From Massospora cicadina (lineage: Eukaryota; Entomophthoromycota; Entomophthoromycetes; Entomophthorales; Entomophthoraceae), in NCBI GenBank assembly GCA_022478985.1, contig JAKSZP010014879.1, positions 1 to 64,000 on the forward strand: a stretch of DNA of 64,000 nt. The letters are read 5' to 3'. Below the pieces are notes generated by a model. That model did no database searches. It was not told the origin of the DNA and saw only the letters and a list, made by a program, of their open reading frames with translations. Below are positions 8,957-55,533 of this stretch, piece after piece; position 1 is the first letter of the stretch, and each line of letters starts with the position of its first letter. The translations under genes were made by a program, and so were the position numbers.

Positions 8957-8988
8957 AGAAATACAGGAGGGATTACCTTTTCTTTCTC

Positions 8989-9215: not shown

Positions 9216-10483
9216 TTGGCAAGCATAATGCAACCAGTACATCAATACGCCGCACTCCCAGCCACTTTTGTCAGTGGAATATGGAGTCTGCATGTTTCTG
9301 GACATTTAACAAACGGCTTTATGGGAAAAATTTTGCGGGGATGTGCACAATTTTTTCCCAACTGCGGTGTACATTGCACCTCACTCCATGTCATACGGTT
9401 GGCTGTAACTAGGTTTAAAAAACAAAGAGGCAGCAGATGAGGCTGCTGCGGAGCGTGTAGTGATTGACCTCCCCGAAGGACAATGGGTCGTCAAAACAAA
9501 ATGCACTAGATGGACAAAATCCAACCAAATTTTCCTCACGTTTGACTTTTTACCTACTACAGTAAAACATGACATTTTGGAGCAACACCTGAAAGATGGT
9601 CTCGCTGTCTACGGCGAAATACAATCTTTTGAAATGCAACTCTTTACGCTGATGCCACACCTTTGCACCAGCAAAGCCATCACAGTTCTGACCCCAACTG
9701 AGGAGATTGCAAAGGACCTAACCCAGATCCCGCACTCCACTCTTATTAATATTAAAGGGCATACCACCCACCCTTTCCAGGTAACCGTGGACAGCGCGCC
9801 CCCCATCTGCACCCACTGTGACGCGTTTGGCCATAAGGCACTACATGCCCCACCAAGGAGGGCGTCACATTCCAAGAGCACCCCTCAGTGGCCATGGCCA
9901 GTGGAGAGGCACACTACAAACCAACCGTAAGCACCAAAGAGGCTTTCCCATGGGGAGCACAATGTTGCTACCTACTGGTAAAGCCTATTTCCCTGAAAGA
10001 GCAGAAGAAGGCCAAGCAGGCCCGCAGGGCTGCGGCCAAGGAAGCTGCCAAAGTCACCACCACTATCCCACACTCCCAACGCCAGGAGGACATCAAAACC
10101 TTCATGGTGGAAGCAAATTGGGAATCCATCAACCAATCAGATTGGGAAGCCCATGCCAATTGGGCCACCCAATCTGAGGATCTGATGGGGTACACAATCT
10201 CACCCAATCATTACAACCAAGCTCCAGTTGAAACCAACTTGGGGCCCATCCTACCTAAAAAATTTTTTTGACCCGCTCAATGGTGCACCAAACTCATCTG
10301 CACTGCAAAAAATTTCGTCCAACGTTAAGGAAACAAAAAGTGAAGGCAAAAGACAACGCAAACCTTTCTGCTAAAATCAATAAAACTACTGATAGCGTTG
10401 CTGCAAACACCCATGCTGCTGTAAAGGCCCATGGGGATCTAGAGGAGAATAGTGGGCCCGGGTGCCCACCCCCTTGCACCTAA
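9216..10483 (+). pseudogene. LINE copy 1 ORF1, zinc-knuckle RNA-binding protein remnant
   Basis: ORF1 proteins of LINEs bind the element RNA. The start region (about 9216-9440) is in another frame from the main part (9460-9930), which reads ILEQHLKDGLAVYGEIQSF and leads to APPICTHCDAFGHKA. That motif has the first part of a C-x2-C-x4-H-x4-C knuckle; the last Cys is lost by a one-base indel near 9840, while copy 2 keeps it. A lysine- and alanine-rich tail (KKAKQARRAAAKEAAK) follows at about 10000-10060. The frame breaks at least three times. Confidence 0.8.
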
Positions 10484-10513
10484 GGTGCGATAGGGGAAAC
10501 CTTCACTTTAGGG

Positions 10514-13500: not shown

Positions 13501-14116
13501 GACTACCTGGACATGATGGACATCTCTTACTCCATTGAGACCCAAAAAAACTATCTGGAAATATGCACACCATCCCCTGTTGCAGCTTCAAATCCGTTCC
13601 CATGTGTGGCGCTGCCTGAGGCAGGTGTACCGTACAGCTGAGCTCTCTAATGCTTTACACTCATCCTGCGTCGTGTGTGGGCAGTATGGAACGCTGTTCC
13701 ACCGCTTGGAGAAGTGTCCTACCTCTAAAGTGATATGGCGCGAAGTTCAACGTCTACTGGGCCAGAATCAAACACATCCCTTCAGTCTGTCAAGAGATAT
13801 GTTTGCTTTATCAATAGCTTCCCCCCTTCCACCCTCCCTCAGTGCTCTGGTGGTTGCAATCGCCATGTGGACCATCCACACGATTATCTTGGATGCCATC
13901 GCAGGCTCCATCCCCACCCTCCCAGAAGCTGTCCACAAATTCCGGTCTCATTTGGTGGACCACTTTCAAGCGTGGATGTTTGGATACCTCACACCGTGCC
14001 ACCAACAGCTGGTATCCTCCTGGTTCCCAGTTTGGTTCATCAAATCAGACCCCTTCCTCCACACGTGTTCAATTGTGGCTACGGCCCCTTCCCACGTTCC
14101 CTCCCCCTCCCCATAA
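10514..14116 (+). pseudogene. LINE copy 1 ORF2, endonuclease and reverse transcriptase
   Basis: ORF2 nicks target DNA and primes reverse transcription there. The presumed ATG at 10514 starts MLNIAGLKA, about 30 bp after ORF1 ends. APE endonuclease blocks are NIYAPN, GNMNCWLN, CIDLILM and SNHRLV (10780-11180). RT blocks are CPGPDGIPYEFYKK, RPISLTN, SIPRRSIWDN, FLDQQKAYDRVNW, GLRQKDPLSPLLYN and the catalytic FADD at about 12545. A C-terminal finger, CVVCGQYGTLFHRLEKC, lies near 13670. Stops and frameshifts, for example near 11405, 11600 and 12300, make it inactive. The layout resembles fungal and plant LINEs with a zf-RVT-type end. Confidence 0.9.
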
Positions 14117-14269
14117 GTGGCGTTCCCGCTGGCAACAAGAGGTAGCATCGCTTCTCTGGGGTGCCTTCCCTGTTACTAAGTGTTGTCTTGGTTGGATCAA
14201 ATTTGAAAGTGTCTGTCCCATGGTCAGCCTTCCCCGCAATAAATTTGAAATAGAAATACAGGAGGGATT

Positions 14270-30963: not shown

Positions 30964-30972
30964 TATAAAAAG
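30964..30972 (+). promoter_or_regulatory. TATA box upstream of the antisense gene in B3
   Basis: TATAAAAAG is followed by TCTGA and, 26 bp further on, by the ATG of the antisense frame. The matching place in B2 has TATATAAG followed by TCTGA. Conservation of the box and its spacing in two diverged copies supports a promoter running against pol. Confidence 0.6.
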
Positions 30973-30997
30973 TCTGATACCCCTCTTGTTAGCTCAT

Positions 30998-32084
30998 ATG
31001 TCAAATTTTAACTTTCATTACCAACATTACCTTGACAATCTTTCTGCTGAAAATGCCCTTCTCTTCCAATTGATAAGTCATTCTGCTCGAAGAAATCTCT
31101 TTTATGGTCCCCCCAGGACCCATACTCCAAGTCAAGCACCTGTAGGTAGTAATTCCACTGAATTACCAGAAATGGTATCCAATCCCAATGAGCCCAGAAT
31201 AGCAACCATCTAAAACAATCTGATGCTAATTCTCCCTCTTTCTTTTTTTAGTACTAGATGGTCCCAACCCAAGGGGGGATTCATCGATGTAATTCTCCCT
31301 CTTTCATTGGTACTCAAAGTGGACCTCAATACTCTGCTAGACATGGCTCGTTTTGTGGATAATCCCATTATAATTGTCAAGCCTCTTGAAGCAATGCTGT
31401 CCAATATCAGTCAGTTGTTTCATGCTGGCTCCAGTTTAATCCAGAGTTCCTTTTTTTGCTCAACCAATATTATAAAACAGATGTTCTTTTAAATAAACTA
31501 ACTATCAGGAATAAATAACACTTTAAGATCCCCTATGCAAAATTAAAAATAAGTAACTGAGACCCTGGCTGAGGCTCTGAAAACCTCCAATCTCCCAAGC
31601 ATCTTAGATTGAGATGTTGCAGGCTACGCTTTTGTTTCACGGGCTAAGTCCTTTAAAGTTGGACCACAAAGCTTCCTGCCTCCCCAACTTCCATTGTTTG
31701 TTCTGCTTCCAATTCTAAGAAGCTTGTAGTCATCGCCTTCAGGATGCCATTCAATCTTTGCATAACTACCTTGTCTCTGGCACTTTGCAATGATGCCTCC
31801 CTCTCATGGCTTTGATTGGAGACATGATTTGGCAACCTCCGTCCAGTATCCCTTGCTCTATGCTGGCCCACATGTCCAACTTTCTTGATAAAGCCTGTTG
31901 GCAAGTACTCAAGACTAAGCTTCAAGCTCTGGTGCAACATCATGATGATTTGGGGTTATTTGCAACTGCCTATTTATTTCTGTTGCTTCCCTCCCCAAAA
32001 TGGAGTATTGCATTTTCAAATACCCAAATTTTAATTTCTCTTTCCCTCATCACATTTTCTCAGGGCTATGTTTCTTCTCAATGA
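30998..32084 (+). pseudogene. Antisense gene of family-B Gypsy, copy in B3
   Basis: It lies between the end of pol and the 3' LTR and runs opposite to pol. From ATG 30998 the frame starts MSNFNFHYQHYLDNLS, then SARRNLFYGP-RTHTPS and ELPEMVSNPNEPR. It aligns with the B2 antisense frame without an indel over about 70 codons. Further blocks (DLNTLLDMARFVDNP, then LIGDMIWQPPSS and ITFSQGYVSSQ) continue to about 32084. A micro-insertion at 31243-31289 and several stops break it. The original protein was probably about 350-400 residues. I recognise no domain. Antisense ORFs in this position are known from some plant Gypsy lineages, but this sequence does not match any I know. Confidence 0.65.
31243..31289 (-). 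mobile_element. 47-bp micro-retroposon, copy 2
   Basis: TAATTCTCCCTCTTTC flanks it at 31227-31242 and 31290-31305. The minus strand of the insert ends TTGGGTTGGGACCATCTAG, then TACT and seven A. It is the longest of three such insertions and interrupts the antisense gene of B3. Confidence 0.85.
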
Positions 32085-32168
32085 ACTTGGCTTTGAGTAG
32101 GTCTAGCCCTTATTAGCGTATTATCTCAAATTTAATTTCAATGTTTTATTTACCCCTACTGTCATACA

Positions 32169-32184
32169 TCCTCCCTCCCTCAAG
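32169..32184 (-). other. Internal purine tract at the pol end of B3
   Basis: The minus strand reads CTTGAGGGAGGGAGGA just after integrase. B2 has the same at 52683-52698 and B1 a weaker one at 5117-5132. It looks like an ordinary polypurine tract, but the LTR begins only about 1.8 kb later. Confidence 0.55.
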
Positions 32185-32529
32185 ATGTGACATAGGCAGA
32201 ATCATCCACAAATTGAGGATTAAAAATATAAAATAAAAGATTTGACTTTTTTTATTTTTTTCCTACTTATTTTTCATATTTATCAATTTTTATTATATTT
32301 TTCTTAGTTTTATATGGGACATGCCCTTTACTCAGCTCAGAGGTCCATCTTTCTATTTATTATTTTCCCAAACTGGTTGCTAGGTATATTCTGACCTACC
32401 AGTTTTTATGGTTCAGAGGTCTTATTATTTAAAGTCTTAATCATTCATTTTGGTTATGCAGTCCTCTTTTAGGACTTAACCAAAAAATTGTTAGAACATA
32501 ACCATTCAATATTTCAGCGGTCCTTCAGG

Positions 32530-34323: not shown

Positions 34324-34948
34324 TGTAGCGAACGAGTTTGCACCAATATCCCACAAGAAAATCTGACAGTAAGAGCCATATTACTGACTCCACTAGGGAC
34401 CAACCTGCTAGAGCCAATCCCCAAACTCGTCCACTGAGCTTCGCCATTGCCACATGTCCTCAGATTCCTGTCCACATGCTGTGGGAGGATACTGAGTGGC
34501 ACGCCAACGCCACACCATGCCAGCTATTGTAGCCCATGTCTTCCAATCTGATTATCTTATTTTAAAATAAAATACTCTTTTTGATTCCTCCAACAAATCT
34601 TTATGTGATTTTAGGATTTATCATAGAAAAATCAACTGGCTATTCAAGCCAGCCTATCCTCATATATATAGTGCTTATGCGAATGTAAAATAGTCTTTCC
34701 CACTATTCCAAGCTCTCCTGAAGCATCCAGAAAATCCATGGCAAGGATTTCATTCCCCATGGAGTCATCATCTGAAACGCTTGTAAGTCTGACATCATAT
34801 TGACTTGGATGTATTTTGGCTCAGACCGATGAATTTTCCTTGCTCCAATTCTTCTTTATTCAGGTTTCTTCTTATAAATCTCATATCCAGATCTAGTACC
34901 AACTGATCCATAGCAATGTACAGATCAGGTACCACCTGATCTGTTACA
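34324..34948 (-). repeat. 3' LTR of element F
   Basis: Plus-strand ends are TGTAGCGAACG and CTGTTACA; it matches 35884-36505. An AAAATAAAATACTC stretch lies mid-LTR, near 34565. Confidence 0.93.
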
Positions 34949-35059
34949 TCACCCCCCTGTGAAGATTGGAATCTCTGGGCCATCCCTGGGCAATGCGCGC
35001 CAACTTCTCCCGTTTGCCACATCATCTCCTCCCTCATATCACCTTTCCACTTCACTCAC

Positions 35060-35650
35060 ACACATGGACAGCCCTTCGCCCATCTCCCAAGCTCTGGACT
35101 AGGTGCTCTGCACTGATCTGCCTGTCACTTCTGGTGGGCTCTCACCTGTTCCAAATGGCCCCATAACTTCTCCTCAGTATCCATCTGGGCACATACCATC
35201 CCATCCAGCCCTCAATATGTTCCATCCACAGCTCCTTTGGATGCTCTTTGTGGATCCACCTGTTGCTTCTGGTGGGCCACCGCCCACTCCAAACTTCCCG
35301 TAACTCTCCCTTGGTATCCACCAGGGCACATGTCATCTCATCTGCCTCCTGGCACACTCTGTCCATGGCCCTTATGGACGCTCCTTTTGGATCCGCCTGT
35401 TGCTTTTTCTGGGCCTTCACTCACTCTGCACTTCCCCATAGATTTCTCTCGATATCCGCCATGGCTAATGCCATTTTGTTCGCCCCTGGTACAACTCATC
35501 CACAGCTCCTTCAGACGCCTTTTGGGTATCCGCCTGCTGCTCCTGATAGGCCACTGCCCGCGCTGTACTCCTCAGTTGATTTTCCTCAATATCTGCCATG
35601 GCCTGCGCCATTTCATCTGCCCCCCCAGTACACTTCACTCCCCGTTCCTC
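35060..35650. repeat. Tandem repeat, about 137-138 bp, four units, in element F
   Basis: The anchor CCTG (g/c)TGCTT-like sequence recurs at about 35121, 35259, 35396 and 35533. The period of about 138 bp equals 46 codons in the minus-strand protein frame. Confidence 0.75.
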
Positions 35651-35709
35651 CAGACACTTGAGCCAACCACATTGTCACTTCACTTGTGACGCCTCTTTTG
35701 GATCACCAT

Positions 35710-35858
35710 AGACCCATTCCTTCCCTTTCGAAACCTCCACCTCCTTCAATTCACAGTCAGTCCATTCCTCCCCTTCTGAAACATCTACCTCCTTTGACTC
35801 ACAACCAGACCATTCCTCCCCTTTCAGAACATCCACCTCATTCCACTCACGGCTGAAC
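35710..35858. repeat. Tandem repeat, 48 bp, three units, in element F
   Basis: CCATTCC recurs at 35714, 35762 and 35810, a period of exactly 48 bp or 16 codons. The minus strand reads through all three units without a stop. Confidence 0.85.
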
Positions 35859-35883
35859 CAAGAACAAGTTGAGTTGAGTCAAA

Positions 35884-36505
35884 TGTAACAAACTAGTTTA
35901 CATTAATATCCCACAAGGGATTTGGAAGTAAGAGCCACATTACTGACTCCACTAGGGACCAACCTGCTAGAGCTAATCCCTGAACCCATCCACCGAGTTT
36001 AGCCATTGCCACATGTCCTCAGATCCCTGTCCACACGCTGTAGGAAATATCAAGTGGCACGTCAACGCCACACCATGCCCGCTATTGGAGCCCATGTCTT
36101 CCAATTTGATTATCTTATTTTAAAATAAAATGCTCTTTTTGATTCCGCCAACAAATCTTTAATTGATTTTAGGATTTATCATAGAAGACTCAATTGGCTA
36201 ATCAAGCCAGTCTATCCTCAGATATATAGTGCTTTTGCAAATGTAAAATAGGCTTTCCCACTATACCAAGCTCTCCTGAAGCATCCAGCACATCTCAGGA
36301 AAAGATTTATTCTACATGGAATCATCGTCTGAAATGCTCATAAGTCTGACATCATATTGACTTAGATGCATTTTGGCTTCAGACCAATAATTTCCCTTGC
36401 TCCAATTCTTCTTTATTCAGTTTTCTTCTCACAAATCTCATATCCGGATCTAGTACCAACTGATCTATAGCAATGTACAGATCAGGTACCACCTGATCTG
36501 TTATA
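35884..36505 (-). repeat. 5' LTR of element F
   Basis: It starts TGTAACAAACTAG and ends CTGTTATA (mutated from TTACA). It is followed by ACTTG. No TGG primer-binding site is evident next to its inner edge. Confidence 0.93.
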
Positions 36506-36899: not shown

Positions 36900-37169
36900 T
36901 GTAACTTTTGGGTAGTTTATTGCACAGGTTGGCTATAAACTTAATAAAAGCACTAGTTGTATGGAGACAACATGTAGGTTGAGTCTTAACAATAAGTGGC
37001 AACAAATCCACTCTGGTAACTATAACTTGAGAATAACAACTAAGGACTTTTATTCACTTCAATCTTCAATTTTTAAATTTTTAAATTTATTGCGGGGAAG
37101 GCCAACCATGGGACGGACACTTCCAAATATGACTCAGGAAAGACAAACTTAGTACCAGGGGAGGCACCC

Positions 37170-40100
37170 TCAGAGAAGCGATGCTATCTCTTGTTGCCAG
37201 CGGGAACGCCACTTATGGGGAGGGGAGGGAACGTGTGGAGGGGCCGTAGCCACTATTGAGCACGTGTGGAGGAAGGGGTCTGATTTGATGAACCATACTG
37301 GGAACCAGGAGGAGACCAGCTGTCGGCGACGCGGTGGGAGGTATCCAAACATCCACACTTGAAAGTGGTCCACCAAATGAGACCGGAATCTGTGGACAGC
37401 TTCTGGGAGGGTGGGGATGGAGCCAGCGATGGCATCTAAGACAATCGTGTGGATAGTCCACATGGCGATTACAACCACCAGAGCACGGAAGGAGGGTGGA
37501 AGGGGGAGGCCATTGATGAAGCAAACTTATCTCTTGACAGACTGAAGAGATGCGTTTGATCCTGGCCCAGCAGACGTTGAACTTCGCGCCATATCACTTT
37601 AGAGGTGGGGCACTTCTCCAGGCGGTGGAACAGAGTTCCATACTGGCCACACTCGACACAGGATGAGTGTAAAGCATTAAAGCGCTCAGCTGTATGATAC
37701 ACCCACCTCAGGCAGCGCCAAACATGGGAGCGGACTTGAGGCTGCAACAGAGGATGGTGTGCATGTTTCCAGATAGTCTTTTGGGTCTCAGTGGAATAAG
37801 GGATGTCCATCATGTCCAGGTAGTCCACCCTGGATAGGACATGGGGTTAAATGGGGATCACGCCATCATGGAAGGGTAGCCCCTGTACCTCTTGTGTGAA
37901 CTGAGGAGAGGGGCGGCCTCTTCGGGTTGTATGTCCACTAATACAAATTCTCCACTCTGCGCTTCGCATGGAGAGTAGGATTTGTTTGTAGTGGGTTTTA
38001 GTCCCGTGAGGACCTGTAGCCGATGTGTGTGATGCGAGGTATTTCATCAGGGAGTGGGGGTTTGATGGATTGTTGAGGCCCAAGGCTTGGGAGAAGTTGG
38101 AGCGGGCCGCGTGGGACCAGCGTTGGGATGGGAGTGTAGGAGTGGTGATGGCCGCGATCCAGGTGCCCAGGATCTTGGCAGCATGGGCTTTGAAGTCAAG
38201 CAGGCCCATGTCACCTTGATGATGAGGGCCAAACATGACCTCTAGCCGTACTGGTGGAGGGCGGCCTGACCAAAGCCATCCTTGCAGCAAAGCATACAGG
38301 GATTTGAAGAAGCTTGGGGAGAAGGGGATGGCGTGGGCTCCAAACCAGACTTTGGATAGGAGCATAGAGTTGGCAAGAACAACCCTGCCAGTGAGGGTAG
38401 TAGGGTGGGCTCTTAGAGAGGCGATTCACTTCGTCACGTTGTCCAGTATACGGCACTCCATTACTGCTGACGCATATCCGCCTGCCTCCATCCACACGCC
38501 CAGATGGCGCACCGGTCCTATGGTAGGACATGGCACAAAGGGGAGCACCAGTGGAGCGGTGTGTGTTGAGTTAGTAAGGCGTGGACGTGGGCGAGCAGAT
38601 GGGCCAGGTTGGGAACTAATTGCTGGGGCCCAGCAGTTCTGAAACTGACCAAGGAGGATGATTTCGGTTTTGGAGGCGTTCAGTGCCACGTTGCTTACCC
38701 GGGAATATTCCTGGATGAGGGCTTCAAGCGCGCATGCATCTTGTTATTAGACACCCCCACCACGCAATCATCTGCAAATGCCATCATCTTGACTGGGGTT
38801 TGGCCTGGCACATGGACCCCAGTGAGTTGGGCATTCACATTTCGCAGTAGTGGGTCAAGGCTGAAGTTGTATAAGAGTGGGCTGAGGGGGTCCCCTTGTC
38901 GCAAGCCCCTTTGAGGGTGGACTACTTTTATTAGGAAGCCTGGGCCACGCACTGCCATTGTTGCAGATTCTGTCATCAGCATCACCCAGCTGATGAAGTG
39001 AGGGGGCAGGCAGAATTGGTGGAGTCAGGCCCTTAGGTATTCCCAGTTTACTCTATTGTAGGCCTTTTGTTGGTCCAAGAATACCAGTGCCCCAGAGGCT
39101 GTGGACTGACATGCATTAGCCTCGGAGTGCACATTATCCCAAATTGACCTTCTGGGGATGAAACCAAATTGTTCTGGGGAGATGGTGACAGATGCTACAG
39201 TCCCTAAAAGGTTAGCCATGATTTTTGTTAAAATTTTGGTGTCTGTGTTTGTTAAAGAAATGGGGCGCCAGTTGGTTAAGTCAAGCTTATCCCCTTTCTC
39301 AAAGAGTGTGACAGTAAAGGCCTCATGTCCTCCTGGTAGGAGGCGCGTTTCCAACAGGCTTTGGTTAAGTGAGGCTAGCAGCAATGGGGATATATATTTG
39401 AAATATTTTTTGTAGAACTCATATGGAATGCCATCTGAGCCTGGGCATTTTCGGTTTGGCACACTGCGAATGGCTGTCCATAATTCATTTGGAGTAATTA
39501 GATTCATTATTTCTGGGTATCGGAAAATGGTGTGGATATGAGCTTGGTCAAGAAATTCCGCCATTTCGGCTGGCTGAATTGGTTCAGCTCGGTATAACTT
39601 GGAGTAATATTTTTGCATCTTGATTGCCACTTCAGCCAGTGTGTCCACAATAGAATTATCCGATCTTTGCACCTGTGTGCAGGCCATGCTCTGGCGTGGT
39701 GCAAAAAAAATTTTAAAGAAGTATGCGGTGCACTTGTCACCTTTAGTGATGCGTGTGGCCCTGTATTGGACACAAAACCGATGTTTATGTTGCCTTTCAA
39801 GTGCGTTGAGGTGGGCGGCTGCCTCCGCCCACTTCTGGCCCCATGCAGGGCTGTATCCTGTGGCTGGAATGTTGGACTCCAAGTGGGCCAATTCCACCAG
39901 AGTGCGCGAGATAACTGCTAATGTGGCTCGTGAGCATCTCAAGGAGAGATGGTGATAGTGGTGGATAGTGTCCTCTTTGAAAGTCGCCCATGTGGAAATG
40001 GGGTCCATGCAAAATGGCGCAACAAATGATTTTGCCAAAGTTGCCTCTTCCACCCACGTGGCAAATCCTGGCGACACGAGCTCAGGGGGGCAGATTTTGC

Positions 40101-40813
40101 ACCAATGTGGGGCCTTTGCAACTGTGACGGGTAAGTGGTAGGTTATTGAGACCAGTTGGTGGTCAGAGAATTCCATTTTCATTGTTTTGAAGTGGGAGAT
40201 ATGGGGTTGGAATTTCGCCAGCATTAGAATAAGGTCGATGCAGGTCATGGACCTTAATTGGCTGTTGTGGATGTGGGGACACGTCATGTTTTCAAGCAGT
40301 GGGGCATGTCACGGCAGTGCATCCATTAACCCAAGGGTGGCTTTTAGAACGCGTAGTTCTACGTGACCCTGTGGGGCGTGGGGTGAGGGAGGCCACTGGT
40401 CTGTTGGTGAGGTTAGCCAACAGTTCATGTCGCCAACTAGGAAAGAATCAGGGGGTAGCAGGAGGGATTTGACTGATGAGAAAAATTCTGACGCTCGTGT
40501 GCACCATTTGGGGCATAGATGTTGACGATTGCATGTGCAACGTCAGCCCACAAGAAGGTGATGATGTGCACTCAGCCATTTAGGAATGTTTCTGAGGATG
40601 TGAATTTGAAAAAATTATTTTTCTGAATTAGCACCCCACAGTGCTTCGACCAAAAGGATAGGGATGGGAGGAGCATTGTTTTCCAAGCTTCCTTGGAACC
40701 TCATGGACAGTGGGACTCCTGGATGGCCAGGATATTCACAGGTAAATTGTGCTGTAAAAACTCAGTTTCCTAGCCTGGGATGGGGAGGCCTTGAGTCTGG
40801 TGATATTCAACAT
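37170..40813 (-). pseudogene. LINE copy 2 ORF2, endonuclease and reverse transcriptase
   Basis: The ATG at 40813 starts MLNI as in copy 1. APE endonuclease runs from about 40813 to 40130 with several frame breaks, and MEFSDHQLVSITY keeps the SDH motif. The 420-codon stretch 40287-39025 holds the endonuclease end and RT start: CPGSDGIPYEFYKK, RPISLTNTD, IPRRSIWDN and FLDQQKAYNRVNW. GLRQGDPLSPLLYN and MAFADDCVVGVS (FADD) follow at 38780-38920. The finger CVECGQYGTLFHRLEKC lies at about 37600-37655. A stop near 39030 and frameshifts near 38690, 38370 and 37480 remain, so it is inactive. Confidence 0.92.
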
Positions 40814-40843
40814 CCCTAGAGTAAAGGTTTCCCCCATCACACC

Positions 40844-42077
40844 TTAGATGTGAGGGGGTAGGCCCCTGGGCCCACCAGCCTCTTCAAGGTCCCCACAGGC
40901 TTTCACAGCAGCATGGGTGTTAGCAGCAATGCTATCAGGGTTTTTGTTAATTTTTGTGGAAAGAGTCACATTGGCTTTGGCCTTCGCTTTTTGTTTTCCT
41001 GATGTTGGACAAATTTTTTGTGGTGCAGATGAGTTCAGTGCACCGTTGAGTGGGTCAAAAAAAATTTCAGTTGGGATAGGTCCCAAGTCAGTTTTGACCA
41101 GAGCTTGGGTGCAGCAATTGGGTGAGATTGAATCTCCCATTGGATCCTCAGATTGAGTGGCCTGCTTGGCATGGGCTTCCCAATCTGATTGGATGATGGA
41201 TTCCTGAGTTGCTTCCACCGCGAAGGTCTTCATGTCCTCCTGGCGTTGTGAGTGTGGTATGGTGGTGGTGGCCTTGGCCGCTTCCTTGGCTGCAGCCCTA
41301 TGGGCCTGCTTGGCCTTCTTCTGCTCCTGTGGGGAGATGGGCTTTACCAATAGGTAGCAGCCTTGTGCTCCCCACGGGAAAGCCTCCTTGGTGCTTGCAG
41401 TTGGTTTGTAGTGCACCTCTCCGCTGGCCATGGCCACTGAGGGGTGCTCTTGGAATGTGACGCCCTCCTTGATGGGGCATGCGTGCGCCTTATGGCCAAA
41501 CGCATCACAGTGGGTGCAAATGGGGGGCGCGCTGTCCACGGTTACCTGGAATGGGTGGGTGGTATGCCCTGCGATATCAATAAAAGTGAAGTGCGGGATC
41601 TGGGTTAGGTCCTTCATGATCTCCTCAGTTGGGGTCAGAACTGTGATGGCTTTGCCGGTGCACAGGTGTGGCATCAGCGTGAAGCATTGCATTTTGAAAG
41701 ATTGTATTTTGCCATATACGGCGAGACCATCTTTCAGGTGCTGCTCCAAAATGTCACGTTTTACCATAGTAGGCAAAAGTCAAACGTGAGGAAAATTTGG
41801 TTTGATTTTGTCCATCTGGTGCATTTGGTTTTGATGACCCGTTGCCCTTCAGGGAGGCAACCACTATGCGCACTGCTGCAGCCTCATCTGCTTCTATTTT
41901 GCTTTTGAAACCTAGGTCCAGCCAACTGCACGACATGGAGTGAGGTGCAACGTACACCGCGGTCAGGAAAATTTTGTGTACATCTTCAAAAAAATTTTCC
42001 CATAAGGCCATTTTTTGGATGTCCAGATACACGCGGACTCTGAATTCCACCGATGAAAGTGGCTGGGAGTGTGGCAT
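40844..42077 (-). pseudogene. LINE copy 2 ORF1, CCHC zinc-knuckle protein
   Basis: The main frame (41776-40844) is open for 310 codons. It reads ILEQHLKDGLAVYGKIQSF, then a complete knuckle C-x2-C-x4-H-x4-C (CTHCDAFGHKAHAC, about 41490-41530), a KKAKQAHRAAAKEAAK basic stretch and an acidic end. The N-terminus (MALWENFFEDVHKIF, LDLGFKSKIEADEAA) is in a second frame from 42077, and one frameshift near 41765 separates them. It ends about 30 bp before the ORF2 ATG. It is a LINE RNA-binding protein. Confidence 0.88.
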
Positions 42078-42313
42078 GTTGATGTACTGGTTGCATCGTG
42101 CTTGCCACGCGAGTATCTCCAGGGAAATTGTGACCGCCAGTTTTGAGATTTTTGTCTATTCCGCTGGATTCTCCAGGGCATTTTCGAACGTTGGAGGCCG
42201 CGGGCCTTCCGCCTGCTCCTCTTACCTTGCTTGCCCAACTGTTCCCTGACATGGGCGCAGACTAATATCCTCTGTGAGATTATCAAACTAGATTTAGTCT
42301 TGAATTGAATAGG

Positions 42314-42333
42314 TTGCAAAAGTGTTTGCAACG
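42314..42333 (-). other. 5'-terminal hairpin of LINE copy 2
   Basis: GTTGCAA (42314-42320) pairs with TTGCAAC (42327-42333), the same stem as in LINE copy 1 with a loop that differs in sequence. Confidence 0.55.
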
Positions 42334-42794
42334 AGAAAGAAAAGTTCAATCTTCAATTTTAAATTTATATTTTAATTATATATCAGTTGAATTGTTTTAT
42401 TAGAGAATGCTAGGGGATGCATAGGAAGAAGGAGGACAACTTTTCAGATGATTCTCTGAAAATCAACTGATTGGTCTCCTAAAACTTCAAACCCTTAGGA
42501 TTGACTTCTGATGATGGTGAATGCCTTTGTCTTAGTTAATCCTCAGCAGTGTAACTTTTAACATATTGGCAACCATCCCCTTGTGTTAGGAACCATACAC
42601 AGATGGGCTGAGTCCATGTTACCTGATCATGACTACTAGGTAACATCAAAACAAGCGTTAAAAAGCTTCAGTAATTTCATAAAAATGACCCTAATTGTTC
42701 AGCTCCTCAGCTTGAACAATTTAATATGGCAATCCAACTATTGGCAATCAAGCCCTCATTGAATTGCCTAATAAACATTATCAGCAATGACCCC

Positions 42795-45978: not shown

Positions 45979-47130
45979 TGTTGAGATTTTTGCCCATATT
46001 CCCAGCCTTCTAGATTACCTGGTATCGCTAGGGGAAAATTCCCTAAGGCAAAGTGTATCAGAAATTGATTGGCCTGAGCTTTGGAGGAACTACATTCAGA
46101 GGGATTTTGAATATTTGCCTGGTTGTATCCGTTGGGGATCAATCTGGATAAATACTCAAGATCTAATCGGGCGGAGTTGCTGACAAAATAGGGACATCTG
46201 ATAGTGATTAACTATCAGGTGTACTGATTGAGATTGGTCAGGCTTCATCTCCGACTGATCGGGAATAAATAGTAAGTTGTTAGGCGAGTGATGCTGCCTG
46301 TAACTAACAAATTGATCAGTTGGTGAGTGACCTGCCATAATGGGTAATAAGTCCCATTGCCTAAGCAGGTCGCTAGCCAACTATGGTTGGTTTGCTTGAA
46401 TTGAGAGTAAAACGTTAGGACACGTTTTCTGACTCTTTCCATTTAAGGTCTTAAGGATGTCCAATGACGGAATCCTATCCAGGATAGGGAAGACCATTGC
46501 TGCTGAGATGAGGATGGGTGATATAATGACAACGGCTGCTGTTTCATTGAAAAGGTGTCAACTGAGGGTTAGACAGATGAATCCCCTACTATATAATTCC
46601 CTAGGATTTACTATAATAAAAAACATTAAACATAATTATTAATATTGTCTACAAGAATAGTATTTTACAGTATTAACATTATCAATTCAGTGTATAGTTA
46701 TACTATCAGCTTCTATTGTGTTATTCTATCCAAGGATATTATTGAAGAGGGCAATAATTGGAAGACTCTCAGAGAGAAGAGTAAAGATCTGAGTGGGTTT
46801 TAAAGAAGAAGGAACCACAATTAGGGGATAGCTGTCAGCTTTGTGTTAGCCAAGAGAGACTGTCACCAGGGTATCTTAGCGAATATCAGGTGGACAAGGG
46901 GATGGGAACAAATCCCTACAAGTATGACAACACAAGTATTTAATTGGGAATACTGGCTGAGCGTTGGGCTGAAATATAGTTCATACTCAACTACGGATAA
47001 TAGTCTCCATACTATTATCAATTGATAATTCATTATATACAATGTGACACAGTGCACGAGGAATTTTGACCTGGGCAGTAAAAAGGTTACTGGGTTGCTT
47101 GCTGATAACAGCCAAGAGTAGATTTTTACA
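45979..47130 (+). repeat. 5' LTR of Gypsy B2
   Basis: It starts TGTTGAGATTTTTGCCC and ends GATTTTTACA. A polyadenylation-like stretch with AATAAAA lies near 46613. It matches 54384-55533. Confidence 0.95.
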
Positions 47131-47133
47131 AGT

Positions 47134-47150
47134 TGGTGCTCACTACAGGG
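47134..47150 (+). other. Primer-binding site of Gypsy B2
   Basis: TGGTGCTCACTACAGGG lies three bases after the 5' LTR. It differs from the Gypsy C site at a single base. Confidence 0.8.
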
Positions 47151-47176
47151 AATAGTTGAGTAAAGAATCTGTAATA

Positions 47177-48500
47177 ATGTTGTACAAAGAAGAGCTACAT
47201 AAACTGTGGACCAAGATAGCCACTTTAAACCAGAATGCTCTAAACTCAGTGGACCATCAGGAGTTTGCAGCCTTGGAAGAAAGAGTCACCAAGGTGGAGG
47301 AAGGAGTAGAGAATGTAGCCAGCTTCAGGAACGAGTTACTCAGCAAAGTAAACTTGTTGAAGAAGAAAGAAGGGGACCTCATTTGAGAGGTCCTATACCT
47401 GAAAATGGAGTGAGAATCTTATTGCGTTTGTTTAAGAAATTTCAGTGTGGATATTGAAAGATTAATCAAACAAGTGGAGGAACTTAAAGCTCACAGATAT
47501 GTTTTTGAGCCTGATATAGAAAGCGATGCTGAAGAAAGAAGTCCTCACATGATACTTGGGAAGTCAAATACCCCAAGGAACATGCCACCTGCTTTTAATG
47601 CCATTTCAGAGATGACGCCCAAAGTCACTCCGCAAGTTATCCAAGTAGTTGAACTGAGATAATCAGCCAGAAATGACTCAGAGAAATTTAAGGCAACGCT
47701 GAAATTGCCAACATTCCATTGGGATAATGCCCCAGCATTTTTCGACTTTTTAACATGACCATGAATGGCTATGGGGATTATCAAAAGGCGGTGATGGTCA
47801 TGAATTGCCTAGACACCAACTGTAAAAACTTAGTGTTTCCTCACCTGGAGGAGGACAGCTTGTTGTATACTGAGGCAAAGGTGGCCATCATGAAGGAGTT
47901 CAGGAGTCTGACATGCATGTCAAAATGCAAGCAAGAATTTATGGGAATCCAGTTCCATTAAGATGAGTCTCTTGCTAGCTTTGCAGATCAATTTTGCCGG
48001 GAGTCTCAGATCCTGGCCAGAGAAAAAGTATTGGACAACTTTGATGCTAGAATCACTTTGCAAGTGGCCCTTTGGCCTTATCACAATTTGCATCATATGA
48101 TGTCTTCCATGTTTGCAACGGAAATAACTACCTCACAAATGGTAAATAACCCGAAGATTTTGGTAGCGACATTTGATGCCCCAAATAGAAGCTTCAAGTC
48201 CAATCCAGTATGAAATCCAAATCCCACAAAGGTAAACGAAGGAGCAGAGGAGGCTATTAATTGAACTGTGCCAGGAAATAAGCCCAAAGAATTTAGATGA
48301 TTAAACAAGAAGGAGAATGTCTGCTGTCAGTGTGGCGGGAAAGGACATTTCTCCATATACTATAAAAAACTGAAGGATCAGATTAAAGTGGTCCAGGCCA
48401 AGGAGACAGCAGCCACCAAGGATTTAGGAAAAGGGCTCATGGCCTAGACAAGGAACAGTCTAGAGCTGCAGAGAAACCTGTTCCTCCTGACATTATGAAT
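47177..48500 (+). pseudogene. Gypsy B2 gag
   Basis: The first frame from ATG 47177 (MLYKEELHKLW, then LEERVTKVEEGVEN) looks like a coiled coil. KAHRYVFEPDIESDAEERS follows after a stop. Capsid-like parts read LKLPTFHWDNAPAFFDFL (47700), EEDSLLYTEAKVAIMKEF (47850) and FADQFCRESQIL (47980). A knuckle at about 48318-48365 reads CCQCGGKGHFSIYY; its last Cys is lost. At least four frame breaks are present. Confidence 0.8.
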
Positions 48501-48653
48501 GAAGAAATTGATATTAGCAATCTGTTTGTAGATGACGAGTAGGATCAGCTATATCAAGTGGACAATATGGATTTGAATGCTGTGACCAGAGCTGGGGCGC
48601 AAAGAATTGACCCTAAGATAATCTAGGAAGTTTCCCAGCCGTACGCCTGACAG

Positions 48654-49283
48654 ATGGTGGATAAGATCCAAACTACTGAGAATCCTGAAGAGTTATATGA
48701 CGTCTGTTTAGATGAGGCTAATCTGTCTATCCCCCTCAGCGTGATAAAGGAATTGTTTCCTGAATTATCAGCGCAAATTATTCACACCCTATATTCAGCT
48801 AATAACGCCGCCATTCACTCAGTAATTACTATATTACAATACTCCAAGTGTACATATATAGATATACAAGTGAATCTAGTGAGGGTGAGGGCAATTTTCA
48901 ACAGCGGAGCACCCTTTAATATTGCTTTGACCAAGCTGGTAAAAAGGATGAAGATCTCACTGTACTTGAAACACAAGAGAGAATATGAGACAGCTGGGCC
49001 AAACACCACCATTTCCTGTGGAGCGTATAGTGCGCTGCCACTACGATTTGTGTCATTGGTGGTATCTGAACCAGCAATATTTTTGGCGAACCAAAACTAC
49101 AACATTATGATTGGAATGAAGTTTCTATGGAAATACGGAATTAAATGTAACTTTGAGGATAATACGTTGACCATCTTGAGTCAGAAGTTACCATTGGTAT
49201 ACCAGAAGGATGGTGAAGCTCCATTGAATCAGAGAAACAACTTCATTAATCTGATATATAATGATGACATTGTCCCAATTTAA
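48654..49283 (+). pseudogene. Gypsy B2 aspartic protease
   Basis: A 209-codon open stretch contains VRAIFNSGAPFNIALTKLV at about 48885-48940. The catalytic Asp is Asn here (N-S-G), while the copy in B3 keeps D-S-G. The flap to C-terminus reads IFLANQNYNIMIGMKFLWKYG, and LTILSQKLPLVYQKDG follows. The length suits a protease plus linker. The D-to-N change should abolish processing. Confidence 0.85.
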
Positions 49284-49385
49284 TACCAATTAGTTGGTAG
49301 ATAGCGACGTGAAATTCCAGCGAAAATCCTAGAGAACTGGGAGATTCCACTAAAAATCAAGAATGAGAGGACCATACCGGCCAGA

Positions 49386-50660
49386 TTGCAGATGATAGTG
49401 GACACAGGGTTGACATTGGAGATTCCTGAGCTGTTGTATGTTGAGGTTGGAAGCCCCTGGAAGAAGTCCATAGTGGAGCTATGGGTGGCTCCTGGGATAA
49501 TAATGCCAGGCCATGGAGAAATTCGAGTTCTCCTGGCAAATTTGAGTGAAAAACTGATGAAGATCAAGAGGAATCAGATCATCGCATTTATTCATCTGAT
49601 CCTGATGGCCAAATTGAGACGATTCCATGATTTTGGGTCTCTCAATGAAATAAGATTACCGGCCATGGTAGCCAAAAGTATTAACCTATTGGTTGATTGA
49701 GAGAAGCTCACTGATCTGTCAGAAGACCAGCAAGAGGAGGTGCTCAAACTATTCAAGAAATATCAGGAAGTGTTCGCTCAGAATGACCATGATTTGGGAT
49801 GCGCATGAGATGTGATCCACAAGGTTGACACCAGGGAAAATTTACTGATAAGGATTAGATTGATCTGACAATCAAAAGCCGCTGAAGCGATAGTGGAGTA
49901 TGAAATCAGCAAACTAGTGAAGCATGGGATTCTAGTTCATCGTCAAGTCCCTAAGTGAGTCTGATTCTGATCGTGAAGAAGAAGGATGGATCAAACTGGG
50001 TGGTGATTGACTACTGAAGGCTGAACAAAACTATAAAGAAGGATTCATATCCCCTACTGAGTATCAATGATGTGCTAGATCGTTTAAAAGAAGCAAAGTA
50101 TTTCTCCATGATGGATCTGATCTCAGGATATTGGCAGATTGACTTGCCAAAGGAAGATCAAGGAAAATGCGCAATTATTACCACGCAGTGGCTATATCAA
50201 CCGATGAGGATGCCTCAAGGTCTATGCAATGCGCCTGCAACATTTCAGAGGGCCATGGATGCAATATTAAGTGACTTGAAGTTGTCATACATCCGTGTAT
50301 ATCTGTACAATATAAACGTACTCAGTAGGATGTTTACTGATCACCTCCACCACTTGGAATAAGTATTTAAGTGACTGTCTGCAGCTAACCTGAAGATCAA
50401 TCCAAGGAAGTGCCACTTCTTCAAGAAAGAGTTGGAATACCTGGGATTGTAATCAACTCAAGTGGATTGCAGCTGCAAACACAGAAGATAGCAGCTATAG
50501 AGTGTATAGTTGTACCAATGAGTGTCCGAGACATCCAAGTGTTCCTTTGGATGGTTGGATACTATAGAAGATTTATTTGGGACTTCGCCTGAATAGCTGA
50601 GCCATTATTCCATCTATTAAAGAATCCAAAAAAGTTTGTATGGAATGGATCTCAGGACTC
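49386..50660 (+). pseudogene. Gypsy B2 reverse transcriptase
   Basis: The linker WVAPGIIMPGHGEIRVLLAN leads to LSEDQQEEVLKLFKKY and the RT blocks NWVVIDY, FSMMDLISGYWQIDLPK, MRMPQGLCNAPATFQRAMD and the catalytic site IRVYLYNINVLS, where YLDD has become YLYN. PRKCHFFKKELEYLG and VRDIQVFLWMVGYYRRF follow. Stops near 49700, 49807 and 50362, plus the lost catalytic Asps, mean it is inactive. Confidence 0.9.
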
Positions 50661-50682
50661 CTTCGATGAGCTATACCAGTAT

Positions 50683-51141
50683 TTGATGGATTCACTGGTT
50701 CTGAAATATCTGAATTTTGATTGGGAGTTTATCATTCAAACTGATGCTTTGTTGACAGCAATTGGCGCCATACTGAGCCAAGTAGACGAACTTGTGGATG
50801 AACATCTGGTGGTGTATGTGAGCTGGAGACTCTCAACTGCTGAGAGGAACTTCACCGTGGCTGAGTGTGAATGCCTTGCAGTCATTTACGCATGCAAGCA
50901 GTTTCAGGTATATGTCCACAGAACTCACTTTAAGGTGGTAACAGACCACTCTTTGCTCCGTAGGCTGCACAATTTAAGAGAGCTGGAAGAACAACTGGCC
51001 CGATGGGCACTTAAGCTTCAGGCTTATGATTATGAGATAGTCCACCGAGCGGGGGCTTTTCACCAAAATGTGGATGGCTTATCAAGGTTGCCAATGGTCC
51101 AGTTGGTATACCCCAGGCAGATGAGCTATTCCGGAGAATAG
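50683..51141 (+). pseudogene. Gypsy B2 RNase H
   Basis: The 152-codon open frame shows FIIQTDALLTAIGAILSQVD, ERNFTVAECECLAVIYACKQ, FKVVTDHSLLRRLHNLRELE and YDYEIVHRAGAFHQNVDGLS. This is a complete Gypsy RNase H with the TDHS and DGLSRL blocks intact. It is continuous in itself but separated from RT by a frame change near 50600-50680. Confidence 0.9.
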
Positions 51142-51194
51142 TTGAAGGAAAAATTGGGGACGAGTCCCAAGAAATCCAAGGTGTGCTTTGAAAA

Positions 51195-52360
51195 GTGATG
51201 GAAAACACTGAGACTATGGATGGACAAGTATTCAAGACGATCAATGGGAAGCGGTTATTATTCCCAAAATTATCAGAAAGAGCAGCGATGTTACAAGCAG
51301 CTCACAAAGTTGTCAGGCATGGAGGCCTGAGGAAAACAACTGACCATATTTGCCATTATTATTACTGGGAAACAATCAACTATAATGTCGCAGATTATCT
51401 GGCTTGTTGCATATAGTGCCAGCTACACAAACCACACAAGAATACAACTGGATACTGACTGGTCCTCCCTGGATTTGCCTGGCACATGGTGTCCATTGAC
51501 ATGATGGGACCGCTGATGATGAGCACAGGGGGAGTCGAGTACATCATAGTTGCCATCGACCATCTGATGAGATGGCTCTAGATGAAGGCCCTAACCAGAG
51601 TAGATTCTATCATTACTGCGTGGTTCATCCTGAATCAAGTGGTATACCAGCTTGGATGTCTGAAGGTCCTGCTTAGTGACAATGGGACCAACTTCACATC
51701 TCGTGTGATCCTGAGGTTAAAGAAAATAATGGGGATCTAAGGGGTCGTGTCAGTACCATACCAGCTGGAGACAAACGGACTGGTAGAACAAGTCAATGGA
51801 ACTCTGGACATGACGCTGAGGAATCTAGTCGCAGGGAGAACTTCCGCGTGGGGAATGTACCTGAGTTTGGTGACATTCGCCTACAATATTAGTCATCAAA
51901 TGGCGATGGGAAAGATGCCTTTGAATTATTATATGGAAGAAAGGCCGCGATGCCACCAATTTTAAGTTCAGTGGTGGAACCTACGTCATGGATGAGTACC
52001 AAGCAATACCTGAATTGAATGACAAGTATCCTGATCAATATGCAATTGCAAGCATTTGACACAACCTTGAAGAAAAGGATATGAGCAAAATCAACGGATG
52101 ACAAGAATTGACTGGCCTTAGAAGAATATTGAATAGGGGGAAAAATTTCCTATTGCGATATGCATAGTTTTGGATGAAGAAACAAATTAGATGAATTGTG
52201 GTCAGGTCCATTTTAAGTAATCACCAAGAGGGCGACCAATGCTTAATCCATCAAAAATCTCTTAGAGGGAATAGTTGTGAATCGAGTCCATGTTAAGTAT
52301 CTAAAGCGTTGGATTGATGATAAAATAAAAGAGTTCCAAAGGACAAATTAACCATTAGGT
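51195..52360 (+). pseudogene. Gypsy B2 integrase
   Basis: The zinc finger reads AHKVVRHGGLRKTTDHICHY, then ADYLACC-x3-C. The core, in several frames, keeps IIVAIDHL, LLSDNGTNFTS and ETNGLVEQVNGTL, so D, D and E are all visible. The C-terminus reads VITKR and then VNRVHVKYLKRWIDD at about 52210-52320. Stops at 51417, 51582 and 51740 break it. No chromodomain follows. Confidence 0.88.
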
Positions 52361-52486
52361 TGGCCATGTCCTGATGATTAGGTCAGGTCTGAAAAAAGGA
52401 CCTCTGAACCAATCTAGATGGTTAAGTCCGAAAAAAGGACCTCTGAACCATGGAAAACTGGAAGATTTAAGTACCCAGGACCCAGT

Positions 52487-53806
52487 TTAGAGAAAAAGGA
52501 TGGACCGCTGAACTAAAACAAGGTCAATTCCCAAAGTAAAAAAAAGAATAAAGATAAAGAAATTGATAAAAGATATTGGAAAAATTATATGCCACATAGA
52601 TAAAAAAGCCAATATAGTTTTATACTTTTTATTTTTATTGATTGTCCTCAGTATGGGGATGATTCTGCCTATGTCGCCTCTTGGGGGAGGGAGGATGGAT
52701 CGCGGTAGGAATGAACAGCCCATCAAAGTCAATATGCGATCAGATGCTAGCGAGGTGAGACCTACATGAAACCACATTCTTTGAGTGGACGCCAAGCCCT
52801 GAGAGAAAGCGACTAGGGGAAGGGAAATTGAGATGCCAGAGGAAGCTAATCGTGAAGCCCCAGAGTGGGGAGGAAAGCAACAGTATAAAAAGAGGTAATC
52901 AGTGAATACCCTAAGTAATCCTGATATGGCACCAGAACTGAAAGATTAGTCCTGAGTTCCTGCTGACAGGCTTCATCAAGGACACTGGACATATGGGCCG
53001 GCAACAAAGAAGGGATGCTAATTGGGGTTTCTGAATCATGTTCCCTATCAACACCATCAGCGGAAGATACTGATGGGAAGCTCTGGAGAAGAGATAGTTG
53101 TGCAGAGAGCGGATTGCATCCTGCAAGTGGTGACTACAGGCTTCTCAGAAGATAAAGCTGAATGAATGGTGGAACCCATGTGAGGCTGGAAGCTTCATGG
53201 ACCAACTTCGAAGAACTTGGCCAGCAAAGCAAAGAGCATAAGCGGTAGTATCCCAATCCAGAAGGTTATCAAGATCAGAGGGATTCAGCGCTAGAGTCAG
53301 AGCCTCAGTGACATAGGCCCAGAGTTCAGCGTAGGGGAGCTCAAAGTGAATACTGTTACCAATTGAGAGCTCAAAACCAGAACAGCGGGTTTGAAATATT
53401 GACCAAGTTGGAAGAGGAATTCAGGGAGCAGGTCTGACCTGGCAAGAAGCAAATTATCCAGAGCCACTGGCATAATCTCTGGAGCATCTACAACGATGTT
53501 TGGAGCATCAGCAAAAGGAGCCAAATCCAGGAGAGTTTCAAAGTCCAACTCTGGAATTGATGGCAGAGGAAGAGTCAGCTGAGAGTTGTTTGAATTGATA
53601 GCCAGCCTGGTTTCAGAGGGATTAGTTACCGTTTCTGGTAATTCAATGGAAGGACTAGCCACTTGTGCCAGACTAGGTGTATGAGTCCTGGAAGGACCAT
53701 AAAAGAGGTTTCATCGAGCATCCTGACTCATCTTCTGGAAGAGATGGAGGTCTGGATCAGACAAACTATTAGGGAGCTGTTGGTAGCGCGACTTGGAATT
53801 TGACAT
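52487..53806 (-). pseudogene. Antisense gene of family-B Gypsy, copy in B2
   Basis: It runs opposite to pol in the region between integrase and the 3' LTR. From ATG 53806 it reads MSNSKSRYQQLPNSLSDP, then a single TGA (CGA in B3), NLFYGPSRTHTPS and a 121-codon open stretch (53662-53297) with IELPETVTNPSETR and DFETLLDLAPFADAP. After frame changes it continues LLDWDTTAYALCFAG, LIGNMIQ and LVAFSQGLASTQRMWFHVG. It ends in a hydrophobic stretch, FPISFINFFIFILFF, near 52590 that may be a membrane segment. The best alignment with B3 starts at the ATG. I recognise no family; function is unknown. Confidence 0.65.
52683..52698 (+). other. Internal purine tract at the pol end of B2
   Basis: GGGGGAGGGAGGATGG lies about 330 bp after integrase ends and 1.7 kb before the 3' LTR, in the same context as in B3 (32169-32184). 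Confidence 0.55.
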
Positions 53807-53834
53807 ATGAGTTGGATGAGAGGGGGATGTCAGA

Positions 53835-53842
53835 CTTATATA
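53835..53842 (-). promoter_or_regulatory. TATA box upstream of the antisense gene in B2
   Basis: The minus strand reads TATATAAG and then TCTGA, with the antisense ATG 28 bp further on. B3 has TATAAAAAG and TCTGA at a matching distance. Confidence 0.6.
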
Positions 53843-54371
53843 GAATTTGACCTTATGCACTATATAATCCATTAAGCTCCAATTTCGGAGAAATTAATCT
53901 CAAAATAATGAGATAAGCTCTCCAAGGGAAGAATTAGGAATGACTTATGCCATGAGGTTTTGAAAGAAATAACAAGGGTGAATAAGAAATATGTATTCTT
54001 AATTAAGACACAAAACAAACATCAATGGCAAGGGTCTCCTGTCTAGGATGAGGAGAAAATCAGGAAATCAAGGATGCTGGGACAAGAATCTGAATATGAC
54101 AGTGGGTCATATACCCTGATGTGGGGAAACTTGGATCCTGAGACTAATATCATCACGAGTAAATCAATCAGCCTGGCACCATAGGTCATGGGGACCACGC
54201 TCTGAGAAGGTGGTAGCGAGGAGGAAGAGTAAGAACGCCATATGCCAAAGGTCGTCCTGAGCAGCGTTAAGTATTGATGAGTGTACTCCACTTGAACCAA
54301 TGAAATATCTGACCAAGTGTCTAAAGAGGTGTTCTCATGCCCCAGTCTTTTTCTCACTGGAAATATAGGCA

Positions 54372-54383
54372 AGAGGGGGGATG
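54372..54383 (+). other. Polypurine tract of Gypsy B2
   Basis: AGAGGGGGGATG directly precedes the TGTTGGG start of the 3' LTR. Confidence 0.85.
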
Positions 54384-55533
54384 TGTTGGGATTTTTGCCC
54401 ATATTCCCAGCCTGCTAGATTACCTGGTATCGCTAGGGGAAAATTCTCTAAGGCAAAGTGGATTGAAAATCAGTTGCCCAAGTTTCAGAGGAACTATGTT
54501 CAGGGGATTTTGGATATCTGTCTGTTCATATCCATTGAGGATCGATCCAGACGAATACTTAAGATCTCATTGGGTGGAGTTGCTGACGAAATAGGGGCAT
54601 CTGATAGTGATTAACTATTAGGTGTACCAAATGGGATCAATCAGGTTTCATCACCAACTGATTGGGAATGAATAGTAAGTTGCAAGGCGAGTGATGCCGC
54701 CTGCAACTAGCAAATTGATTGGTTGGTGAGTGACCTGCCATAATGGGTAATAAGTCCCATTACCTAATTAGGTTGCTAGCTAAATATGGTTGGTTTGCTT
54801 GGATCAAGAGGAAAACGTTAGGGACACGTTTTCTGACTTTCTGTTTGAGGTCTCAAGGATGTCCAACGATGGAATCCTAGCCAAGATGGGGAAGACCATC
54901 GCTGCCAAGATGAGGATGGGTGATTCAACGCCAATGGATGCTGTTTAATCAAAGAGGTGTCAACTGAGTGTTAGACAGCTGAATCCCCTACTATATAATT
55001 CCCTAGGATTTACTATAATAAAGATATAATAAAAAATTATTATTATTATCTACAAGAATAGTTTTTTACAAGTATTAACATTATCAATTTGGTGTATAGT
55101 TAGACTATCATCTTCTATTGTGTTGTTCTATCTCAAGGATATTATTGCAGAGGGCAATAATTGGAAGACTATCAGAGAGAAGAGTAAAGATCCAAGTGTA
55201 GATCTAGAGAAGAGGAAACCACTTTCAGGGATAGCTGCCGACTGTGTGTTGGGCAATAGAGACTGTCACTGGAGTATCTTAGTGAAGATCAGGTGGACAA
55301 GAGGGTGGGAACAAATCCCTACGAGTATGACAACACGAGTATTTAATTGGGAATACTGGCTGAGCGTTGGGCTGAAATATAGTTCATACTCACCTATAAA
55401 TAATAGTCTACATACTATTATTGATTAATAATTCATTTTATACAACACAACGCAGTGCACAAGGAAATTGAACCTGTGCATTAAAAAGGTTACTGGGTTG
55501 CTTGCCAATAACAACCAAGAGTAAATTTTTACA
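54384..55533 (+). repeat. 3' LTR of Gypsy B2
   Basis: It matches 45979-47130, starts TGTTGGGATTTTTGCCC and ends AATTTTTACA. The AGGAC duplication follows. Confidence 0.95.

What the first reader, a model, noticed from the sequence alone, without database searches (positions are those of the whole stretch)
52487..53842. Antisense gene with its own TATA box in family-B Gypsy elements
Between integrase and the 3' LTR, B2 (minus strand) and B3 (plus strand, 30964-32084) both carry a reading frame running against pol. It starts with the same M-S-N, reads NLFYGP-x-RTHTPS, and aligns without an indel for about 70 codons, while the surrounding pol genes are full of frame breaks. Both copies have TATA(T/A)AA and TCTGA 26-28 bp before the ATG. 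B2 also ends in a hydrophobic stretch. I do not recognise the protein. Antisense extra ORFs are known from some plant Gypsy lineages, so the arrangement has precedent, but this protein family may be new.
Basis: partly seen in the sequence, partly recalled or inferred. Interest (0 to 1): 0.88.

Follow-up and report, generated by a model that had tools for sequence, protein, structure and literature searches.

The report
Antisense gene in fungal Gypsy retrotransposons
A family of old copy-and-paste mobile elements in a very large, probably fungal, genome carries an extra gene written backwards behind its usual genes; comparison of copies shows that selection long preserved its protein, which resembles nothing in the databases searched.

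Summary
B2 is an old Ty3/Gypsy insertion (LTRs 45979-47130 and 54384-55533) whose sense coding ends near 52350. Behind it, on the other strand, lies one 391-codon frame, ATG 53806 to stop 52637, broken in B2. I compared 40 B2-type and 30 B3-type copies from the same 1.47-Gb genome. Between the subfamilies there is no group-level indel across the 391 codons; the first lies just past the stop. Fixed differences at codon positions 1/2/3 are 41/29/95 (p=1.7e-10; transversions only 18/16/40), with no bias in the flanks. Mean pN/pS between subfamilies is 0.41, against 0.49-1.09 in the other five frames. So this was a selected protein gene, tail-to-tail with pol. The 40 bp around its start, with a TATA box, differ less between subfamilies than the stretch upstream, which fits an own promoter but does not prove one. 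No relative was found in the collections searched. [quoted passage not shown]

The parts
52635..53806 (-). Antisense accessory gene of B2, 391 codons in the common alignment columns, broken in this copy
53807..53842 (-). Conserved leader with TATATAA (53842-53836), TCTGAC and CAG before the ATG; candidate promoter
52350..52634 (.).
30998..32229 (+). Counterpart of the gene in B3, broken
45979..55533 (+). B2 Ty3/Gypsy insertion with LTRs 45979-47130 and 54384-55533, flanked by AGGAC on both sides
   Evidence: integrase judged by eye, its piece had no Pfam hit

Best explanation
B2 and B3 belong to a Ty3/Gypsy family that carries an accessory protein gene antisense to gag-pol, between pol and the 3' LTR. 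SHOWN: a 391-codon frame, tail-to-tail with pol across a spacer of about 0.28 kb, which evolved under protein-level purifying selection before the present copies decayed. INFERRED: it is read from a short TATA promoter directly before the ATG. INFERRED, weaker: the product is a soluble protein with a basic C-terminal tail that acts in the nucleus on the element's own expression or transposition, as others propose for similar genes; antisense transcription may also temper sense transcription. Rough odds: selected protein gene 0.95; own TATA promoter 0.55; nuclear or regulatory role 0.4.
For: No group-level indel in 391 codons and fixed differences 41/29/95 by codon position, flanks 6/13/9 and 9/5/9; transversions alone 18/16/40, p=7.5e-4; mean pN/pS 0.41 (0.33-0.50, 1200 pairs) against 0.92, 1.09, 0.80, 1.08 and 0.49 in the other frames; 3.6 in-frame stops per copy against 25.3 and 15.9 in the other antisense frames; sense codon phase ends near 52350, before the antisense stop; columns -38 to +1 differ between subfamilies at 3 of 40 against 61 of 228 upstream, Fisher p=0.008; TATA-like hexamer at 53840 in 35 of 40 B2-type copies and a TATA-like motif in 23 of 30 B3-type copies; basic residues at codons 377, 378 and 381 in most copies.
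Against: None of the 70 copies is free of stops and indels over the frame, so present function is not shown. Shared variants within the B3 group show no clear position-3 excess (122/97/124). In the B2-B3 pair the first 50 codons give no clear frame signal. Diversity within each subfamily is not lower in the leader than around it. An out-of-frame ATG lies at -47 in 31 of 40 and 18 of 29 copies, awkward if transcription starts upstream of it. Copies were picked by likeness to the antisense region; of 7 pol-picked stretches read, 4 showed the gene. No RNA data. The nuclear role rests on a short basic tail and analogy; codon 379 in that tail is a stop in 18 of 40 and 15 of 30 copies.
Confidence: 0.75

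Rival explanations
1. Same protein gene, but the conserved leader is the 3' splice site (branch-like TCTGAC, pyrimidine run, CAG) of an intron whose first exon and promoter lie upstream, perhaps in the 3' LTR; the TATA match is then incidental.
For: TCTGAC, pyrimidines and an AG at -7 (85% and 79% of copies) stand before the ATG; the splice consensus is recalled, from no call.
Against: No donor-like GT[AG]NG site is shared by 15 or more of 40 B2-type copies between the 3' LTR and the TATA box; the LTR itself was not scanned.
Confidence: 0.2
2. The antisense strand makes a regulatory RNA and the frame is incidental.
For: Antisense non-coding transcripts are known from other retroelements, such as micropia (PMC7264820 passage).
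Against: Codon-position bias, absence of group-level indels and low pN/pS are protein signals.
Confidence: 0.04
3. The gene was captured from the host or from an unknown virus rather than born inside the element; it may keep the donor's activity.
For: It sits as a separate module with its own leader between pol and the LTR.
Against: No relative in the protein set, PDB, Pfam, viral contigs or prokaryote contigs. How well these cover eukaryotes is unknown, and single genes in the own genome would be hidden behind thousands of element candidates.
Confidence: 0.25
4. Chance open frame.
For: Short antisense frames are common; the window has many.
Confidence: 0.01

Closest known systems
brtn of Boty-like Ty3/Gypsy elements, Botrytis cinerea and Sclerotinia (Zhao et al. 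2011; seen only through citing papers PMC7264820 and PMC8365987)
   Different: Sequences could not be compared here; relatedness unknown
gene23 of maize Grande and related RIRE2
   Same: Antisense, between pol and 3' LTR; gene23 is transcribed from a promoter upstream of it and its product is nuclear (PMC7264820 passages)
   Different: Plant hosts; protein not compared; promoter here only inferred
Retand antisense ORFs with TRP28 domain
   Different: No TRP28-type Pfam match in any of 13 natural stretches
Antisense genes of HTLV
   Same: Antisense accessory gene near the 3' end
   Different: There the promoter is inside the 3' LTR (PMC7264820 passage); here the conserved TATA lies about 540 bp inside the LTR border

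Membership tests
Antisense additional ORF between pol and 3' LTR (aORF-3R) | Lies between pol and 3' LTR, antisense to gag-pol | tested here: met
Antisense additional ORF between pol and 3' LTR (aORF-3R) | Conserved as a coding frame across copies of the family | tested here: met
Antisense additional ORF between pol and 3' LTR (aORF-3R) | Present in most copies of the family | tested here: inconclusive
   4 of 7 pol-picked stretches showed it; the 2 of those 7 that also held the pol end both had it
Antisense additional ORF between pol and 3' LTR (aORF-3R) | Antisense transcript | not testable with these tools
   No RNA data
Retand TRP28 proteins | TRP28 domain (pfam04195 in the paper) | tested here: not met
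   Not listed for any of 13 stretches at E up to 0.1; that the library holds the model was not checked
Boty brtn / Grande gene23 | Sequence homology | not testable with these tools
   Their sequences were not on hand
Env-like extra gene | Sense orientation; membrane segment (recalled) | tested here: not met
   Antisense; no 19-residue window above 1.61 Kyte-Doolittle in three natural stretches
Ty3/Gypsy LTR retrotransposon | LTRs, target duplication, protease-RT-RNase H with integrase after them | tested here: met
   protease weak (below Pfam cut-off), integrase by eye only

The most novel reading that the evidence does not exclude
A previously undescribed accessory-protein family, kept by selection in an abundant Ty3 family of a giant fungal genome (perhaps an insect-killing entomophthoralean): an independent origin of the antisense-accessory-gene layout known from plant elements, Boty and HTLV, possibly linked to the family's great expansion.
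Probability: 0.4. Interest if true: 0.66.

Novelty: new member of a known kind. Interest (0 to 1): 0.5.

Why it matters
Antisense accessory genes occur in plant Gypsy elements, in Boty and in some retroviruses, and their job in retrotransposons is unknown. A case with clear codon-level selection, a conserved leader and many copies in one genome makes the question testable by RNA mapping and by comparison among related species. It also shows that repeat annotation which looks only for gag-pol can miss a selected gene.

Tried and rejected
Rejected: chance frame. Rejected: by-product of a sense gene; no pol-strand frame is open there. Rejected: the hydrophobic tail as part of the protein. Considered: an in-frame ATG at -66, present in 37 of 40 B2-type copies but in fewer than 5 of 29 B3-type copies, so not the shared start. 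Led nowhere: three protein-database searches (none at E<=0.001; 23: none at E<=1; 53: none at E<=0.1), PDB (best E 0.94), Pfam (only a weak SulA match, E 0.025, in 1 of 13), viral contigs with the antisense protein and an RNase H piece, prokaryote contigs, Rfam and tRNA scans of the window. B1 gave no third subfamily: its hits overlap B3-type contigs. Structure prediction was not used: its stated rule does not list loci from the genome search, and the window's own pieces are short.

Papers: PMC7264820 abstract, sections 5 and 7 and passages; PMC11963269 abstract and Discussion; PMC8365987, PMC12210899, PMC11105155 passages; PMC9584336 first of three parts (89); all others only as search listings (36, 63, 67, 69, 71, 93; one search found none). 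In those searches I saw no report of this protein or of an antisense gene in rust or entomophthoralean Gypsy elements; 'antisense' does not occur in the main text of PMC12210899 or PMC11105155.

Full report
WHAT IS THERE. B2 is a complete but old Ty3/Gypsy insertion: LTRs 45979-47130 and 54384-55533, with AGGAC on both sides. The LTRs differ at 166 of 1149 aligned sites. Pfam finds RT and RNase H, and a protease below its cut-off, on the plus strand; integrase was recognised by eye and its piece had no Pfam hit. B3 is a relative in the opposite orientation, interrupted by other repeats. In both, the strand opposite to pol carries a frame beginning M-S-N, and 69 codons align at 56.5% identity without a gap. 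In B2 the frame holds 3 in-frame stops and 4 single-base deletions against the common columns of its relatives. In the B2-B3 pair, among antisense-strand frames, the lowest pN/pS moves from frame to frame downstream of about 53660, as frameshifts would make it; the first 50 codons show no clear signal in the pair.

COPIES. The window lies in a genome of 1.47 Gb in 16968 contigs. First looks listed 6794, 7548 and 8179 unverified candidates for three queries from this family; 40 were scored each time. I used all 40 places of the first search (B2 plus 39, L002-L040) and the 30 loci given for the second, of 40 scored genome places (B3 plus 29, L042-L070). The 39 copies match B2 at 82.7-89.6% identity, 37 of them from near the 3' LTR border on, two from further in. 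Columns filled in more than half of the B2-type copies give one continuous frame from 53806 to 52637. It has 3.6 stops per copy on average against 25.3 and 15.9 in the other two antisense frames, and no pol-strand frame is open. The start is ATG in 35 of 40 copies; the stop is present in 36 of 40 and 20 of 30. Of 167 in-frame stops in B2-type copies, 114 are one C-to-T or G-to-A step from a codon seen in sister copies, 77 of them from CGA; 53 are not. None of the 70 copies is free of stops and indels over the frame. The longest natural run from the ATG in the 40 B2-type copies is 354 codons, its end out of frame by eye.

SELECTION. Between the subfamilies (40 and 30 copies) no group-level indel falls in the 391 codons; the first lies at 52632, just past the stop. 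Fixed differences (at least 80% in each group) at codon positions 1, 2 and 3 are 41, 29 and 95 of 391 each (p=1.7e-10); the flanks give 6/13/9 and 9/5/9. Because CpG decay is heavy here, I counted transversions alone: 18/16/40, p=7.5e-4. Mean pN/pS over 1200 between-group pairs is 0.41 (0.33-0.50) against 0.92, 1.09, 0.80, 1.08 and 0.49; the 0.49 is the mirror frame that shares the wobble position and is closed by stops. Among 400 pairs within the B2 type it is 0.51, again the lowest of six, but the gap is small (0.56 next). Variants shared by five or more B2-type copies lean to position 3 (69/64/101, p=0.006), variants in 2-4 copies do not significantly (90/81/102), single-copy variants do not (172/175/157). 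Within the B3 type shared variants show no clear lean (122/97/124). I read this as selection along the source lineages followed by neutral decay of inserted copies.

BORDERS. On the pol strand, in 8 B2-type and 29 B3-type copies (L068 dropped for a short match), the codon phase runs to about 52350; then indels appear until the antisense stop at 52637. The two genes are tail to tail. Columns -38 to +1 around the antisense ATG differ between subfamilies at 3 of 40, against 61 of 228 further upstream (Fisher p=0.008; L065 left out); diversity within each subfamily is not lower there. The leader holds a TATA-like box, TCTGAC, a pyrimidine run and CAG. A TATA-like hexamer stands at 53840 in 35 of 40 B2-type copies (a stricter motif count gave 31 of 40) and a TATA-like motif in 23 of 30 B3-type copies. 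This fits a TATA promoter with a very short leader. It also fits a fungal-type 3' splice site (recalled consensus), though no common donor-like site was found between the 3' LTR and the box.

ASCERTAINMENT. Copies were picked by likeness to the antisense region. As a small check I took 8 places picked by a pol stretch of B1: 7 could be read (one only 987 bases), 4 showed the antisense gene; both that also held the pol end had it.

THE PROTEIN. Thirteen natural uninterrupted stretches align over 391 columns. Two long ones (330 and 316 residues) are rich in leucine and serine and acidic (pI 4.8 and 5.6); a C-terminal one is basic (pI 8.9); no 19-residue window exceeds 1.61 on the Kyte-Doolittle scale. 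Codons 377, 378 and 381 are K, R and R in most copies, while codon 379 is a stop in 18 of 40 and 15 of 30. No relative was found: protein set, PDB, Pfam, viral contigs (19, 76, 77), prokaryote contigs (78). Even an RNase H piece found no viral-contig relative, so 'orphan' is only as strong as the reach of those sets.

HOST. Actin-family matches fall on 10 contigs, several split into close pieces; the best is a conventional actin. With the abundance of Ty3 elements this suggests, without proving it, a fungus with a giant genome. Size and contig number resemble the published Massospora cicadina assembly (1.488 Gb, 19694 scaffolds, 41.1% GC; PMC9584336), but identity was not tested and rusts are not excluded.

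COMPARISON. [quoted passage not shown] their roles are unknown (PMC7264820; PMC11963269). By position, orientation and conservation this gene belongs to that kind. It shows no TRP28 match and could not be compared with BRTN or gene23.

VERDICT. The promoter is likely but unproven; the function is inferred by analogy.

Noticed in passing
52681-52700 and 54366-54383: A purine tract ending GGAGGATG inside the antisense gene's tail resembles the tract before the 3' LTR; it could be an internal priming tract or an older 3' end of the element.
   Followed up: no
52635-53806 in 40 copies: At sites where at least 3 copies keep CG, the copies read CG 671, CA 1064, TG 885, TA 42, other 218: heavy CpG-type decay.
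   Followed up: partly
8977-14250 and 37079-42344: Two inverted copies (86.7%) of what looks by eye like a non-LTR retrotransposon; not scanned with Pfam.
   Followed up: no
34324-36503: Two 0.62-kb direct repeats (88.3%) about 0.9 kb apart lie within B3's pol: perhaps a small nested LTR element.
   Followed up: no
659-1621: An open 320-codon integrase-like frame, by eye with a chromodomain-like end, from a different Gypsy lineage (motif recalled).
   Followed up: no
53829-53834: TCTGAC ahead of a pyrimidine run and CAG just before the ATG looks like a fungal branch site and 3' splice site in many copies.
   Followed up: partly
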